DNA of 64,000 nt from the NCBI GenBank assembly GCA_026027325.1, contig JAMSLZ010000003.1, forward strand, positions 930,001-994,000, in the 5' to 3' direction. The position numbers and the translations under genes are program-made. Position 1 is the stretch's first letter; every line of letters begins with the position of its first letter. Positions 448 to 7,727 of this stretch are shown piece by piece. The stretch is from Actinomucor elegans. Taxonomy: Eukaryota; Mucoromycota; Mucoromycetes; Mucorales; Mucoraceae. The notes beneath the pieces were generated by a model. The model saw nothing but the letters and a program-made list of their open reading frames with translations, did no database searches and was not told the origin of the DNA.

Positions 448-3400
448 ATGTCTTTTGGTCGAAATAAAACTCTATCTAAGAAACAACGATCGTCTAGTAG
501 CCCTTCTAAACCAATGAATGAAAATGAGTTGTTTCAACAAGATGATCTGGGCAACAGATCGTCCTCATCGCCTTTCATGTCCTTTACTCCAAAAACCAAT
601 CCCGATCTAAGCCGTCGCTATACCCAAAAGAAACCACCACCCACTGCCACAGAGTTCATGACAGAGTTTGAACAAGAAAGACGGCATATACCGCCGCCAG
701 AGTCTCCAGTTCTCGATCAAAATGATGAGATAAGCGAGGATAGTATCGCGTCAGATGACGATAATCAAGATTTCTCAGATACGGCTCGATTGACTTTGAA
801 CGCCTCCACTATGACCGGTTTTGAATCCAACAAAGTCGGCAGTAGCAGCGATCATCTGCGTCCAATCCTTGATGAAGAACGACTCTCGTACGATGCGAAC
901 AATGCCAGTAGGGTATCATTCCAGCAAGGACGACCTAGCAGTAGAATCTACCAGCCTGCTTATATAGACCCTGAAGAAGATCAAAGAAAAAGAAAGCTCG
1001 ACAAAATTAAAGACATTGATCCAAAGGTCTACACTGGTGCCATATCCAGAGCGATAAGACGCGTATCAAGAAGAGTTGTGAATGTGCATAATAGTAGCAC
1101 GAATATTGACAGTCCTGCACCTCAGCTTCATCATCAATCACAACAGAATGCATCTCGGACTGATGAGCGACTTTCTCTCATGAACAAATCGAAAACGTAT
1201 GACGAAACTACTGAGGATTCTGATACATCCTCTATCACTGAGGATGTGGTGCCAACGACAAGCACTGCCTCCAACCATCTGGGAGAGACATCAAATCAAG
1301 CATTACCTACCAACACCTCTATACCATACGCTGATAAAGACAAGAAGAAATTCATTCAACTGAGTGGTAGAAGCTTAAAGATATTCCCTCCAACAAGCCC
1401 GATCCGTTTATTTTTTGCGCGTATTCTATGCTGGAAGTAAGTAACAGTAAACTCAACATGTTGTATATAGCTAACAGTTGCCCTTTAGGTGGTTTGAATC
1501 ATTGATGATGCTGTTTATTGTGCTTCATGGATGCGTATTATTGGCAGTTGGTTGGGGAACTAATCCATTCCCTATACCACCAAGTAAATGGGCACCAACC
1601 TGGGATCAAGCAATACTATTAGTGATATTCTCGTTTTACACGTAATGTACCAAGTGTCCATATAATATATTTTCATGCATTAACCTTATGTACGTATATA
1701 TATGTGCAGACTAAGCGTCATCTGTCGTATCATAGTATATGGTGTCTTTTTGAACTCTACACCCAATTCGAAAACTGCATTTTTAAGGCATAGTTGGAGT
1801 CGAGTTGATTTCGTTTCTGTCGTAGCTTATTGGGTTGATCTGGTCCTATTACTCAGTCAACAGGAAATTATAGACGATGAAGGAAGGCGCATACTAGTCT
1901 TTAAGATGCTATCTGCCTTGATATTGCTTCGGTTATTGAATTTGACAGATGGTAGTAGAGTGATCTTGAACAGTTTGAAAAAGGCAGCACCACTACTGGT
2001 GAATGTCCTGTTCTTTGTTCTCTTCTTTTTCGTCATATTTGCGTAAGTAATTGTTGAATCAAAAATAACTTGTGTATTTACTCTATCCATCATAGTATTG
2101 TTGGAGTACAGTCGTTCAAAGGTTCTTTTAGAAGACATTGTGTGTGGCATGGTATGTATGTTTGTCTGGTCTATTGACACTGGGATTCACTTTTTATTTT
2201 ATTTTTACTAGATCCCAACAATTACACGAATACCCAAGAACTACAACAGTATTGCGGCAGCTATAGAAATGCCTCAGGTGACGTAGTACCATATCTACTA
2301 AAAGATGGACGTGAAGCACCTTGGTCTAAAGGCTTTACTTGTGAAAATGGGTTGATTTGTGAGGTAAATAGTGGACCAAAAAAGTACAAAGTATGATCCT
2401 GAACAATCAATTAGGAAACCGAGAATCCATTTGGCGGCACAATTAGCTTTGATAATATCTTTTCATCCATGCTATTGGTCATGATTATCACAGGCGGTAA
2501 ACATTGTCTTAATGCCAGTTGATAGTAGCAATCTAAACCCCTTTTTTCATTTAGTACAGTCATGGACAGACCGTATGTATGATATGATGGACGCTGAATA
2601 TTTCATCGCAAGTCTCTACTTTGTAATTATTGTGATTGTGATGAACTTTTGGCTTATTAATTTGTTCATTGCCGTTATCACTGAAATGTTTGCTAAAGTC
2701 AGAGAAGATTCGCAACATTCAGCATTCACCAGCTCAACGTAAGTATCAATTATGATACTTTCCTTACCATTTGACCAACACTTTATAGTGCAAAACCCGT
2801 CCTAGCTGACGTTGTTGAGGAAGATGGTTGGGCTTTCTCTGAAAATGATCCAAACCAAAAGAAAAAATTCAAAAATACGTCGATTTTGGATGTCATTGTC
2901 AAATACATGAAGCCGTTCTGGATCCTTCTTGTGGTAGTAGATCTATTATGTATGGCCTCAAAGAACAATAGCATGTCTGTTCAAGAACTTGAAGCATTGA
3001 ATATGGTGGAAACGATATTCTCTTTGGCCTTTTTGTTTGAAATCCTGCTACGCATGTTGAGTCAAAGAAAAGACTTGAAGGCTTTCTTTCGAGACAAACT
3101 AAATACTACCGACTTTTTTATTGCCATTATCACCTGTATCATTCAAATCCCTCCTATAGTTGAGAACCAGTTTGTGTACGTTTGGTTCACTGGCTTCCAA
3201 GTGCTTCGAATCTATAGACTAGTAGTAGCCATCCCAAGACTAAGAGCCTTGATGGTAAGCAAAGTTTTTGAAAGACATACAACATAACTGATCATCTATT
3301 TAGTCTCGAGTACTAGGAAGCGTGTACGGTTTGATCAACTTGGCATTCTTTATTATTTTAGCTACACTTCTATGTGCTATTATCGCATTTCAGTTGTTTG

Positions 3401-6400
3401 AAGGCGTTATCAATGAATTGGGTGATGATAACGAAATGAGATTTTTTTCAGTGTATAATTCATTTGTTTCTTTGTATCAGGTAAGTGCCAATGCGATTGT
3501 GATACAGACGTCTTTTGCTTATTAGTATTGTACAGTTATTTTCGGGCGAAGATTGGACGACGGTATTATACAATGTTATGGAAGCTGGGTCAGATAATAG
3601 AAACAGTGCAATATATGCGTTATTCTTAGTGTTATGGTTTGCATTTTCCAACTGTAAGTTCACTGTGTAGATGTGTCTTAAATTTCCTAGCTAAACTTTT
3701 GCTTTTGATAGTTGTTTTAGTCAACTTATTCATTGCTGTCCTTATGGAGAATTTTGAAATTGCAGAAGAAGATAAACGAAAGCGTCAAGTCATGCATTAT
3801 ATGAGAAAAACCGAGCTCGAGCTAGATAAAAAGACGGTCGTAAGTCGGTGGAACATTTACCGGTATTTTAAGCCTCAAGCAAAAGGCCTGGATGTCAAAA
3901 ACATTCCTAGTAATCTGGTGCTATCAGTTCAGAAGAACATTGTACGCGAATTCATGAATGAAGCAACTGACAGCAAACCACACCAGCCAACATTACAATC
4001 CAAACCCAGACAAGAGAATGAAAACGGTATCCTTGCCAAAGTACAAAGCTTTTTGGGTCGGTTATTTCCAGAGTCTTCTGATACATCACAGCAACAGCAA
4101 CAGCAGCAGCAAAAGCATCGTAATAGAAACACAATGTATATCGATCCAACAAATGCTTTCGATCAAGTTGGCACTTTTTATGACTTTAAAAAGAAAGGCG
4201 AAATTCATGATATGAATGAACCTCGATCTTTACGCTATTTGGTAGACCCATCTTTACGAGAAAACGTAACCAACAGATACCAACAAGAAGCAACTGATCA
4301 TGATCTAGAAGAAAGAAAGGCCTTGAAAAGAGATTTCATCACTGCTCATCCTTCCTATGACAAATCGCTTTATATCTTTTCTCCCAGAAATCGTATCCGT
4401 CGATGGTGTCAGTTAATTGTTCAACCTAGTCGTGGTGAACGTACTTTTGGTACGCCTGCGAACCGATGGGGAAGCATCATCTTTTTAACTATCATTACAT
4501 GCTGCGTGATTACCAACGTAGTTCTCACTATCTATAATTCGCCTGTCTACCAGTTTGAACATCGAGGCAATCCTTCTGCAATTCTGCCTTTTGTGTATGC
4601 AGATTGGGCATTTACTGTTATTTTCACTGTAGAGTTTGTTATCAAGGTCATTGCCGATGGTTTAATACTGACTCCTAACGCGTACATGTTGAATGGCTGG
4701 AATATGTTGGATCTGTTTGTATTGATTACATTGTACATGTCAAATTTTGGTAACTTTGCTGCTGCTACCGGCTTGGAGCGTGGTTTCCGTGCCTTCAAAG
4801 CCTTAAGAGCATTACGTTTAATCAACTTGTTGGGGCCTGCAAAGGAAACATTTACTGCTATTCTTGTTACTGGTCTTCCTCGTATTATCGATGCCGCTGT
4901 TTTGGGTCTCTGTCTGATTGTACCTTTTGCGCTCTATGGGCAAAATGTGTTTATGGGCCTATTCTTTCACTGCAACGACGAGGATGGAAATAAAGTGGAT
5001 TGCGTTTATGAAGGCATGTTGGGCACTCAAGAGCCTATGCCAGAAGATAGCAGTATCTATATGCCGCGCGTTTGGACCAATCCTTATGTGTACAGCTTTG
5101 ATTCTTTTTGGAGCTCACTTCTAATTCTGTTTGAGATTGCTAGTGGTGAAGGTTGGATTGATGTGCTTACTACTAGTATGGGTATCACTGGCAAGGATCT
5201 TGCTCCCCAGCAAGACGCAAGTCAGCTTTGGGGTATCTTCTTTATGGTGTACAATTTGGCCGGATCTGTATTTGTCATTTCTTTATTTCTTGGTGTAGTG
5301 ATCGAGAACTTTACAAAGCGTAATGGTTCTGCGTATCTGACAAGTGACCAGCGTCGATGGTTGGACCTCAAAAAGCTGCTGAATCAAATCAGACCAGCTA
5401 AGCGACCCAAGACTGTACCTACAAATCCTGTTCGCAAGTTTTGCTTTGATTTGACTGTAGAGAAAAGAGGCAAATTCTACAAATTTATGACTGTAATAGT
5501 TACATTGAACATATTGTTCTTGTGTACAGATACGGCTCGTGGATCGAATATTGATTTCATTCTAACTGATGAAGCGAATGGATGGAGTCGAGTTAGAGGT
5601 TGGTATCTAGTATAAGTCAAATTATATGCAATACTAATGTATTTCTATGTAGTGTATATCTATCTTGCCTTTGTGTCTCTTTACTTAATAGAAATTCTAA
5701 TCAAGATTCTAGGCCTTGGTTGGAAATCATTTCGCAGAAACTTGTGGAATCTGTTTGATTTGATTATGGTCCTTGGTTGCTTCATTACAGCCCCTATTGC
5801 TCTCATTCATCCTGACTTGCAAGTGAATGTAGAGTCTCAAAAGTTGTTCATGACTGCTCTTTCATTCAAGCTAGTTCAAAGAAGCGACAGTTTGAATCAA
5901 CTGTTCACTACAATGGCGTGAGTACTCTACAAAACTTATTTTGTGTATTAGATGTTCATGTTTTATTCAATTTCTAGTGCTTCTTCATATCAAATTCTAA
6001 ATGTATTTGCTGTATGGTTCGTCGTGATGACTACATATGCAATCATGTTTATGCAGATTTTTGGTTTGACCAAGTATGGTCCTAGCGCAACTACTGAGCA
6101 TATCAACTTTCGCTCCTATGCTAATACCATGATTTCACTTGTTCGATATACAACTGGGTATAGTGAACAATTTAATCAGCTAAATGACACTCAAGATTAA
6201 CTTTTGACATCTTTATTAGTGAGGGTTGGAACTCTATTATGCATGATTTCACTATAGAGTATCCTAATTGCGTGGTTGCTGACAACTACCTTGATTCTGA
6301 TTGTGGGTCCCTTCGTTGGTCCTACTTTTTGTTCTTGACGTTTAATATTATTTCAATGTATATTTTCATTGCCATCTTTGTCGCTGTAGTAGCAGACAAT

Positions 6401-7727
6401 TTCTCGTATGTATATCAGATCAAAGCCAACTTTTCTTTGGTGAACCGAGATGAAATCAGAAAATATCCTTTTATATATATATATATATGTACACATGATA
6501 GAACAAACATACTAACACTCCATATATTCATCCTTAACCTTTATTTTTACGTTCAAGATGACTTGGGCATCAATAGATACAGATAGAACAGGTTATATCA
6601 AGCCAAGTCAATATATGACGCTCTGGAGGGTAAAGAAAGAATAACTTGCTCAAGAACGATCACTGACCAATATTATTAGAAACTGGAAGGCATATTTAAA
6701 GTCCGTATTTTCGATCCAGAGTTTTCGTACAAGACGCTAGTAAAGGAATGCAGTGTTTCCGAAGCTATTGGAAATGCAAATAGTGATCCATATCAGCATA
6801 ATTTGGACTTGGTTGCGTTGAACAAAAAATTGAATCTATTGGATAAACGAGAAATTCATACGAGAAGACATGATCTGGAGAGAATCTATTGGGTATATAC
6901 CATATAACCGCATAACAATTTGTGATAGCTGACATTTCAACTTAGGAAACTGCATTGGTCGAATCAGCTTCCAGAGGTGTATCGTTCAACCAAATGCTAC
7001 TCATGTTGGCACAAAGGAAATTGATTGTTCCTGAGAACGCGCTTGTGTAAGCTTATATATACACTATTAAGCCTATCATGTTCCTCATCTTATATTACAT
7101 ATAGATTGGAGGAATTATTAGAAAACCAAAAGAAGGAAGAAGCCATACATACGTTGATTTCGATTGATCGTGTTCGAGGATTGATCGAGACTATCGCTTT
7201 ACGCAAAAAGTTCTTGAAACACTTGGAGAGTAAGAAGCAAAAAGATAGTAAGTTGTTTTCTTATGTGTAATGTTACTCTTTGTTAATCCATTTTCGAACT
7301 AGTACCTGCTATTATCATTGACAATAGCGAGGTGATACAACATCAGGTCCCAATAAACAATGAACTCAGGTCTCACAATGGGGATTCAGTACATTCATTG
7401 AATAGCGCAAGGTAAAAAGAATGTTTTTAAGTGATATTGTTGGCAATCAAACTAACTTTTGAGAAAAAATCATAGTCATAGCCATACTTCTGTTTATGAT
7501 CATTATTTATCGAGCGATGAGGAAGACGCAGCCTCTGACAAGGAACTAGAGGACGATGATGATGGAAACTATAGTGACACTAGTTCTAGAGGAGACAATA
7601 TTATTGAAGACGTATCATCACATGACATCTGGCAAGGTAAAGTATAACAAAGGCTCTGCCAGTCCAACTACCCTAACAATATAACTTGTTTTCTATAGAA
7701 ATGTTGAGAAACGAGTCCAGACAATAG
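448..7727 (+). CDS. CCH1: CCH1 voltage-gated-type calcium channel alpha subunit (four-domain)
   Basis: This is the pore-forming subunit of the fungal high-affinity plasma-membrane calcium channel, which normally works with Mid1. I model 21 exons: 448-1436, 1489-1641, 1710-2042, 2096-2151, 2212-2363, 2415-2496, 2555-2738, 2789-3254, 3304-3480, 3536-3653, 3712-5598, 5653-5917, 5978-6157, 6220-6462, 6551-6629, 6680-6892, 6946-7046, 7105-7247, 7303-7411, 7476-7636, 7699-7727. They sum to 2039 codons plus stop, close to the yeast protein. A Ser-rich cytosolic N-terminus precedes four six-helix repeats. Pore loops read VQSWTD (I), SGEDWTT (II), SGEGWID (III) and TGEGWNS (IV), giving a Q/E/E/E filter. 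Repeat III has an S4 with RAFKALRALRLINLLG. After repeat IV comes an EF-hand-like IRKFKMTWASIDTDRTGYI. The II-III linker has a short polyQ near 4090. The intron between exons 14 and 15 is AT-AC type. The family assignment is strong; single exon edges are inferred. Confidence 0.93.
6463..6550 (+). other. U12-type AT-AC intron in CCH1
   Basis: The intron starts with ATATCCTTTT, which is the canonical minor-spliceosome 5' site. It has a U12-like branch sequence TCCTTAAC at 6531-6538 and ends in AC, 13 nt after the branch A. Splicing here joins IRK to FKMTWASID, the conserved segment after repeat IV. No GT-AG alternative restores that segment: the only nearby GT (6489) would add a translated TA repeat. 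The intron is 88 nt and contains a short (TA)n near 6472-6487. Confidence 0.88.

What the first reader, a model, noticed from the sequence alone, without database searches (positions are those of the whole stretch)
6463..6550. Minor-spliceosome (U12) AT-AC intron in a fungal calcium-channel gene
The intron begins ATATCCTTTT, carries TCCTTAAC as branch 13 nt from the end, and ends in AC. Only this splice restores the conserved IRKFKMTWASID segment. Animal voltage-gated sodium and calcium channel genes are known to carry AT-AC introns, and minor spliceosomes are rare in fungi outside early-diverging lineages. If the position matches an animal channel intron, it would be an ancient retained U12 intron shared across opisthokonts.
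Basis: partly seen in the sequence, partly recalled or inferred. Interest (0 to 1): 0.78.

Follow-up and report, generated by a model that had tools for sequence, protein, structure and literature searches.

The report
Fungal calcium-channel gene's minor-spliceosome intron
A calcium-channel gene of a Mucor-like fungus is cut by a rare AT-AC intron that only the cell's second (minor) splicing machine should remove; relatives appear to carry the same intron at the same place, but it is not the intron that animal channel genes share.

Summary
Window 6463-6550 is an 88-nt phase-2 intron, ATATCCTTTT...TCCTTAAC(6531-6538)...AC, in an intact Cch1 gene (model 2037 aa, 20 introns; the other 19 are GT-AG). 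The genome has candidate U11, U12 and U6atac genes and candidate U11-48K and 59K proteins; U4atac was not found. The strict AT-AC motif occurs 13 times genome-wide against 1 for the reversed control; 12 of 13 have a suitable AC. Public Cch1 proteins of relatives misread this junction: six show R-K/Q-YPF, as ATATCCTTTT would translate; six others delete ten residues. In all, 22 of 45 Mucoromycotina/Glomeromycotina proteins are disturbed at or just before it (20 by script, two by eye), against 0 of 149 others, so the intron is probably old in Mucoromycota. The proposed link to animals fails: their conserved AT-AC intron is in domain I S1, 1432 residues away. At that site the fungal gene has a U2-type intron, same codon and phase. 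So this is a new member of a known kind; the extra interest is its age in fungi, the class difference at the animal site, and an AT-AC-only minor-intron set. No RNA evidence. Confidence in minor splicing about 0.95.

The parts
448..7727 (+). Cch1 (NALCN/Cch1-family four-domain cation channel) gene, predicted CDS of 2037 aa in 21 exons
   Evidence: gene model, by hand-set scores and by eye; 83% identity of residues 1500-1960 to a Mucor circinelloides protein; best PDB match: human NALCN. The last two introns and the 5599 donor are less certain.
6220..6462 (+). exon upstream of the intron, ending ...GATGAAATCAGAAA (D-E-I-R-K, codon split 2/1)
6463..6550 (+). U12-type AT-AC intron, 88 nt, phase 2
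6463..6472 (+). 5' splice site ATATCCTTTT; pairs with the U11 5' end (CCTTTT:AAAAGG) and with U6atac (TCCTTT:AAAGGA)
6531..6538 (+). branch site TCCTTAAC; ATCCTTA (6530-6536) pairs with the U12 snRNA sequence UAAGGAU (7 bp)
6549..6550 (+). 3' splice site AC, 13 nt after the second branch-region A
6551..6629 (+). exon downstream (...KFKMTWASIDTDRTGYIKPSQYMTLWR)
   Evidence: the junction region aligns without a total gap or insertion of 3 or more residues in 149 of 149 listed proteins outside Mucoromycotina and Glomeromycotina
6440..6557 (+). rival in-frame GT-AG splice (GTGAAC...TTCAAG), deletes VNRDEIRKFK
   Evidence: ten-residue deletion at the same place in P0007, P0016, P0017, P0021, P0032, P0064
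6510..6516 (+). TACTAAC inside the U12 intron (U2-type branch-like motif; unexplained)
1437..1488 (+). U2-type GT-AG intron (GTAAGT...TTTAG), phase 2 in codon K330, at the domain I S1 site where animal Nav/Cav genes carry their conserved AT-AC U12 intron
   Evidence: PMC6259924, PMC5133883

Best explanation
Window 6463-6550 is a functional U12-dependent AT-AC intron. U11 (AAAAAGGG) and then U6atac (AAAGGAGAGAA) recognise ATATCCTTTT, and U12 (GUAAGGA) pairs with TCCTTAAC, bulging the branch A. Splicing to the AC 13 nt downstream joins IR-K-FK in the region after IVS6 of Cch1. If the intron is retained, the frame stays open through it and stops at 6586, losing the last 275 residues; the full-length channel therefore depends on the minor spliceosome. 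The intron was probably already there in a common ancestor of Mucoromycotina and Glomeromycotina, and it is not the animal channel intron. SHOWN: motifs, frame, conserved protein across the junction, U11/U12/U6atac candidate genes, genome-wide motif excess, relatives' apparent read-through at the same codon. INFERRED: actual splicing, minor-spliceosome dependence, antiquity, any regulatory use.
For: Perfect 5' site and near-perfect branch site with the right spacing. U11 71.4 bits (cut-off 39), U6atac 67.5 (cut-off 33), U12 45.7 (below its cut-off of 53, but with intact UGAGUAAGGA), one hit each. Zinc finger like U11-48K, 32 bits, and PDCD7/59K, 31.2 bits, both over cut-off. 13 strict AT-AC motifs against 1 reversed control, 12 of 13 with AC 11-21 nt after the branch A. 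In four of eight hosts given to Pfam, a domain over its cut-off spans the junction: RNB, LSM12, importin-beta N, prefoldin. Without a U12 option my gene finder truncates the channel to 1750 aa (hand-set scores). Relatives: RKYPF or RQYPF at this junction in Mycotypha, Apophysomyces ossiformis, Halteromyces, Zychaea, Choanephora (whose protein ends ...DEIRKYPF) and Funneliformis geosporum. Script: 11 of 27 called Mucoromycotina and 9 of 17 Glomeromycotina anomalous at this junction, 0 of 20 Mortierellomycotina and 0 of 129 others. Two species have one clean and one disturbed prediction each (Rhizophagus irregularis P0127/P0128, Gigaspora margarita P0034/P0126), which fits annotation trouble more than a real protein difference.
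Against: No RNA evidence. U4atac not found in four attempts (checks in 49, 67). U12 is below the Rfam cut-off. An in-frame GT-AG alternative exists. Many relatives (16 of 28 Mucoromycotina, 7 of 17 Glomeromycotina) have clean proteins, which could mean intron loss or correct annotation; their DNA was not read. All 20 Mortierellomycotina and both Basidiobolus proteins are clean, so the antiquity reading needs loss, correct annotation or a later origin there. Protein anomalies are indirect and phylogenetically non-independent; not all are tidy (P0026, P0028 are otherwise distorted, P0059 ends before the junction, seven of the nine Glomeromycotina anomalies are larger or shifted deletions). Two other junctions at variable loops (5599, 7248) are also often anomalous, in all groups, and in Glomeromycotina four junctions reach 5 of 16 to 6 of 17.
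Confidence: 0.95

Rival explanations
1. A major-spliceosome GT-AG intron, 6440-6557 (GTGAAC...TTCAAG), is used instead; the U12 motifs are coincidental. A TACTAAC at 6510-6516 would serve as branch site.
For: In-frame; a ten-residue deletion at the same place is annotated in six relatives; TACTAAC is present in the intron.
Against: Weak donor. It deletes VNRDEIRKFK, in a stretch where 149 of 149 listed proteins outside Mucoromycotina and Glomeromycotina show no total gap of 3 or more residues. Several relatives at 71-83% identity (P0001-P0004, P0006, P0008) have the full-length stretch. The U12 motif combination is far rarer than chance. The annotated deletions look like gene-finder workarounds that refuse AT-AC (inference).
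Confidence: 0.03
2. An AT-AC intron spliced by the major spliceosome (AT-AC class II).
For: Such introns exist (recalled; class named in the title of a reference seen); CTAAC-like motifs inside this and other AT-AC introns.
Against: 5' site ATATCCTTTT and branch TCCTTAAC are the U12 consensus (class II resembles U2 sites, recalled); the genome keeps U12-type snRNA candidates whose recognition sequences pair with the sites.
Confidence: 0.02
3. It is the same ancient U12 intron as in animal Nav/Cav genes.
For: Same gene superfamily, same AT-AC type.
Against: Animal site is domain I S1 (PMC6259924; PMC5133883). Cacna1c has its two minor introns at introns 2 and 13 of 44 (PMC8767276), whereas this one is after IVS6. 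NALCN, the closest animal relative by PDB search, lacks the D1S1 site.
Confidence: 0.03
4. A remnant intron no longer spliced (machinery decayed), giving a truncated channel.
For: U4atac not found; small intron set.
Against: The reading frame continues to the end of the gene and the C-terminal exons match relatives; U11 and U6atac well conserved.
Confidence: 0.02

Closest known systems
U12-type AT-AC introns of Mucoromycota (Phycomyces blakesleeanus, Rhizopus oryzae; PMC2846911) and Rhizophagus irregularis (PMC10639083)
   Same: Same motifs, same machinery, same fungal clades. Bartschat and Samuelsson counted by EST 9 AT-AC and 8 GT-AG in Phycomyces, 1 and 2 in Rhizopus (one of their two scoring methods; table passage).
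   Different: I found no passage naming Cch1 as host (searches and passages). Here 12 credible strict-motif AT-AC and no credible strict-motif GT-AG U12 introns.
Conserved D1S1 AT-AC U12 intron of animal Nav1, Nav2, Cav1-3 (PMC6259924)
   Same: Same channel superfamily, same intron class and subtype as the fungal intron.
   Different: Different position: residue 330 by alignment against 1762 here. The fungal gene's intron at the animal position is U2-type.
Minor-intron dependence of Scn5a and Cacna1c (PMC8767276)
   Same: A four-domain cation channel whose full-length mRNA needs minor splicing.
   Different: Shown by U6atac knockdown in rat cells; only inferred here.

Membership tests
U12-type (AT-AC subtype) spliceosomal intron | 5' splice site ATATCCTTT | tested here: met
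   ATATCCTTTT at 6463
U12-type (AT-AC subtype) spliceosomal intron | branch site close to TTCCTTRAC, roughly 10-20 nt from the 3' end | tested here: met
   ATCCTTAAC, 8 of 9 positions; A6537 to 6550 = 13 nt
U12-type (AT-AC subtype) spliceosomal intron | terminal AC | tested here: met
   6549-6550
U12-type (AT-AC subtype) spliceosomal intron | host genome encodes U11, U12, U4atac, U6atac | tested here: inconclusive
   U11, U6atac over cut-off, U12 at 45.7 of 53 bits; U4atac not found
U12-type (AT-AC subtype) spliceosomal intron | host genome encodes U11/U12-specific proteins | tested here: inconclusive
   zf-U11-48K 32 bits (but the family also rang in 1 of 14 control genomes, Sulfolobus) and PDCD7/59K 31.2 bits (0 of 14 controls) are both over cut-off; 65K, 31K, 35K, 25K, 20K not searched
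U12-type (AT-AC subtype) spliceosomal intron | spliced at these sites by the minor spliceosome | not testable with these tools
   no RNA data
Animal Nav/Cav D1S1 U12 intron | position in domain I S1, phase 2 | tested here: not met
   U12 intron is at residue 1762; the D1S1-site intron 1437-1488 is GT-AG with a GTAAGT donor
NALCN/Cch1 channel family | best sequence match to Cch1/NALCN rather than Cav/Nav | tested here: met
   fungal CCH1; NALCN E 4.8e-104, 351.9 bits, against Cav1.3 299.3. Orthology of Cch1 and NALCN is supported in PMC12412391 and denied in PMC10120453.

The most novel reading that the evidence does not exclude
The four-domain channel gene carries two deep introns in opposite classes. 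The domain I S1 intron, U12 AT-AC in animal Nav/Cav, is shared by descent with fungal Cch1, where it is now U2-type; it would then predate the split of Nav/Cav from NALCN/Cch1, against the published view that it marks only the Nav/Cav branch, and record a class switch. Separately, Mucoromycota keep a different U12 intron at the end of the channel, so in both kingdoms a four-domain channel depends on the minor spliceosome, through different introns.
Probability: 0.4. Interest if true: 0.65.

Novelty: new member of a known kind. Interest (0 to 1): 0.5.

Why it matters
It gives a landmark for minor-intron retention in fungi: one AT-AC intron that seems traceable, by position and by its read-through signature in annotated proteins, across Mucorales and arbuscular mycorrhizal fungi. 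It suggests that several public Cch1 proteins are mis-annotated because gene finders refuse AT-AC introns. It counts against a simple 'shared animal-fungal channel U12 intron' and replaces it with a testable class-switch hypothesis at the domain I S1 site. It also offers fungi in which dependence of a calcium channel on minor splicing could be tested outside animals.

Tried and rejected
U4atac: Rfam model at E 0.001 and at E 10, and two patterns built on the expected U6atac pairing, gave no candidate that survived cmscan or a look at its complementarity. I treat this as not found, not absent: U4atac rang in 0 of 14 control genomes at E 0.001, and at E 10 weak hits rang in 11 of 14, which are prokaryotes.

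A relaxed motif RTATCCT-N-TCCTTRAC gave 33 matches against 38 for its control, so only the strict motif is informative and the census is a lower bound.

A strict GT-AG census gave 1 match, with no AG at a suitable distance. A GT-type candidate on the window minus strand (23944) was rejected: its reading frame is open straight through. L017, the thirteenth AT motif, has no AC at a suitable distance and is probably chance.

My first dynamic-programming gene models had spurious introns or wrong introns near the domain I pore and before IVS2. One hand model broke the frame. The final model is.

Pfam did not call an EF hand or GPHH domain over cut-off after IVS6 (13.2 and 13.4 bits against 25.4 and 26.8), so 'EF-hand-like' is resemblance only. 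Relatives' DNA was not read: the window's genome has no relatives in the genome set, and the other collections offered are prokaryotic, viral or plasmid, or (metagenomes) capped at zero scans; none was tried. Human CACNA1C intron 2 coordinates (c.371/372) are recalled; a search for them in print found nothing usable. The SCN5A junction is supported by PMC5133883.

The CTAAC enrichment was noticed by eye first and then tested with several motifs, so its P values are optimistic. A Fisher test of 22 of 45 against 0 of 149 ignores relatedness and is not used as evidence.

Full report
WHAT IS THERE. The window lies in a 36.5-Mb genome in 27 contigs. The closest listed protein relatives of the gene are Mucorales (Mucor circinelloides, 83% identity over residues 1500-1960). 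Positions 448-7727 encode an intact four-domain cation channel of 2037 aa with 20 predicted introns. By sequence it is fungal CCH1, and its best solved relative is human NALCN. One paper argues that Cch1 and NALCN are orthologues (PMC12412391, passages); another denies it (PMC10120453, passages).

THE INTRON. 6463-6550 reads ATATCCTTTTATATATATATATATATGTACACATGATAGAACAAACATACTAACACTCCATATATTCATCCTTAACCTTTATTTTTAC. It is 88 nt, phase 2. The other 19 predicted introns are GT-AG and 49-70 nt. My simple gene finder, with hand-set scores, chooses the U12 option when it is allowed and otherwise ends the channel at 1750 aa. Sixteen in-frame GT-AG or GC-AG splices can be written across the region and none keeps VNRDEIRKFKMTWASID; the one that removes least of it without adding intron letters (6440-6557) deletes VNRDEIRKFK.

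IS IT MORE THAN CHANCE. ATATCCTTT-N20..80-TCCTTRAC occurs 13 times in the genome against 1 for the reversed pattern. Twelve of 13 have AC 11-21 nt after the branch A. Eight spliced flanks were given to Pfam; in four the domain spans the junction above its cut-off (RNB, LSM12, importin-beta N-terminal, prefoldin), one has a domain starting after the junction (IPK), one a sub-threshold TBC match, two nothing. The flanks of three other census introns (L010, L016, L018) were not tested. With GT in place of AT the strict motif occurs once, without a suitable AG. Relaxed motifs are at chance level (33 against 38).

MACHINERY. U11 (71.4 bits, cut-off 39), U6atac (67.5, cut-off 33) and U12 (45.7, cut-off 53) each have one hit, over the full length of the model. 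Their recognition sequences pair with this intron: 6 bp U11 to 5' site, 6 bp U6atac to 5' site, 7 bp U12 to branch site. A CHHC zinc finger (PF05253, 32 bits, cut-off 21.1) contains CPFNKRHQVPQSSMDSHYRQC; it resembles U11-48K, although the family also rang in 1 of 14 control genomes. PDCD7/59K matches at 31.2 bits (cut-off 27) with a 304-aa open frame and no control hit. U4atac was not found. 65K and 31K were not searched.

RELATIVES. Fungal DNA of relatives was not available, but annotated proteins carry a fingerprint. If a gene finder reads into AA|ATATCCTTTT the protein shows K-Y-P-F. This is seen exactly at the junction in Mycotypha africana (P0005), Apophysomyces ossiformis (P0012), Halteromyces radiatus (P0015), Zychaea mexicana (P0023) and Choanephora cucurbitarum (P0029, whose protein stops there), and as Q-Y-P-F in the mycorrhizal Funneliformis geosporum (P0133). 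Cokeromyces, Absidia, another Apophysomyces, Phycomyces and two Ambispora proteins delete ten residues there (VNRDEIRKFK or its counterpart). I assigned groups by genus name: 28 Mucoromycotina, 17 Glomeromycotina, 20 Mortierellomycotina, 129 others including unlabelled ones, all 194 proteins listed (323 and 309 hits, overlapping; only the best 120 of each are listed). By script, anomalies at this junction are 11 of 27 called, 9 of 17, 0 of 20 and 0 of 129. By eye P0029 (not covered by the script) and P0133 (called clean by it) are added, giving 12 of 28 and 10 of 17.

The 12 Mucoromycotina cases are 5 YPF, 4 ten-residue deletions, 2 otherwise distorted (P0026, P0028) and 1 that ends before the junction (P0059). 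The 10 Glomeromycotina cases are 1 YPF, 2 ten-residue deletions and 7 larger or shifted deletions. Sixteen of 28 and 7 of 17 are clean; loss or correct annotation cannot be told apart, but Rhizophagus irregularis and Gigaspora margarita each have one clean and one disturbed prediction. The same script on 17 of the other 19 introns of the gene shows, in Mucoromycotina, high rates only at two variable loops (11 of 28 at 5599, 10 of 26 at 7248; otherwise at most 3 of 28), and those are variable in the other groups too (98 of 129 and 102 of 124). Glomeromycotina are noisier: four further U2 junctions reach 5 of 16 to 6 of 17, including 5599, and 7248 reaches 13 of 17. Counts are not phylogenetically independent. 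Dikarya, for which a broad survey reports no convincing minor introns (PMC10639083, passage), show no anomaly among those listed. [quoted passage not shown] so presence in the common ancestor is inferred, not shown.

POSITION AGAINST ANIMALS. [quoted passage not shown] In SCN5A it is intron 3, before L132 with c.393 as the first base of exon 4, so codon 131 is split in phase 2 (PMC5133883, passages). Minor-intron retention was measured for Scn5a intron 3, and Cacna1c has minor introns 2 and 13 of 44 (PMC8767276, passages). The fungal U12 intron is 1432 residues further on, after IVS6, aligned with human NALCN LR-H-FQIIW. But the fungal intron 1437-1488 splits codon K330 in phase 2, and local alignment puts K330 on SCN5A S131 and CACNA1C K124 without a gap at the junction (human sequences and the CACNA1C exon boundary recalled). 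That intron has a GTAAGT donor and TTTAG end. The chance that any of 20 introns meets one given site and phase is about 0.3%, or 5% within two residues in any phase. Common descent with a U12-to-U2 switch is attractive but rests on one species' DNA.

MECHANISM AND CONSEQUENCE. Retention leaves the frame open through the intron and stops at 6586, losing the last 275 residues of the normal protein. The complete C-terminus therefore should need minor splicing. Whether the fungus regulates the channel this way is unknown. In rat cardiomyocytes U6atac loss reduces Scn5a and Cacna1c products (PMC8767276), a parallel and not a proof.

NOVELTY. Minor introns in Mucoromycota are published. I found no mention of one in Cch1 in searches of the open library; supplementary intron tables of the surveys were not read, so it may be listed there. 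It is a new member of a known kind. Interest is moderate, raised by its apparent depth in fungi, the class difference at the domain I site, and an apparently AT-AC-only minor-intron set.

Noticed in passing
window 1437-1488: U2-type GT-AG intron at the same codon and phase as the conserved animal Nav/Cav U12 AT-AC intron (domain I S1); possible class switch.
   Followed up: partly
L006-L016, L018 and window 6510-6516: CTAAC, a U2-type branch-like motif, lies inside 6 of 12 AT-AC introns (CTAA in 10 of 12). Expected for CTAAC: 0.9 of 12 by dinucleotide shuffles, 0.3 of 12 by GC-limited random windows; 3 of 19 GT-AG introns of the window gene have CTAAC, 7 of 19 CTAA. It may mean dual recognition or incipient conversion; unexplained, and noticed before it was tested.
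   Followed up: partly
G000: Strict-motif minor introns are 12 AT-AC and 0 credible GT-AG, unlike Phycomyces (9 and 8 by EST in one scoring method, PMC2846911). Looser GT-AG ones may be missed.
   Followed up: partly
G000 C27:195701-195847, C23:2162383-2162547, C24:547942-548079: Single candidate genes for U12, U11 and U6atac; no U4atac found.
   Followed up: partly
P0005, P0007, P0012, P0015, P0016, P0017, P0021, P0023, P0029, P0032, P0064, P0133: Public Cch1 proteins that look mis-annotated at this junction (read-through KYPF/QYPF or ten-residue deletion).
   Followed up: yes
P0019 and P0028: Dichotomocladium elegans has two listed Cch1-like proteins, one clean and one aberrant at the junction; perhaps a paralogue.
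   Followed up: no
window 23944 (minus strand): GTATCCTTTGCC...TTGCTTAAC...AG resembles a U12 GT-AG intron, but the reading frame is open through it; rejected.
   Followed up: yes
L011: AT-AC intron in the LSM domain of an LSM12 gene; fly and human LSM12 also have a U12 intron (GT-AG, PMC2831892 table passage), position not compared.
   Followed up: no
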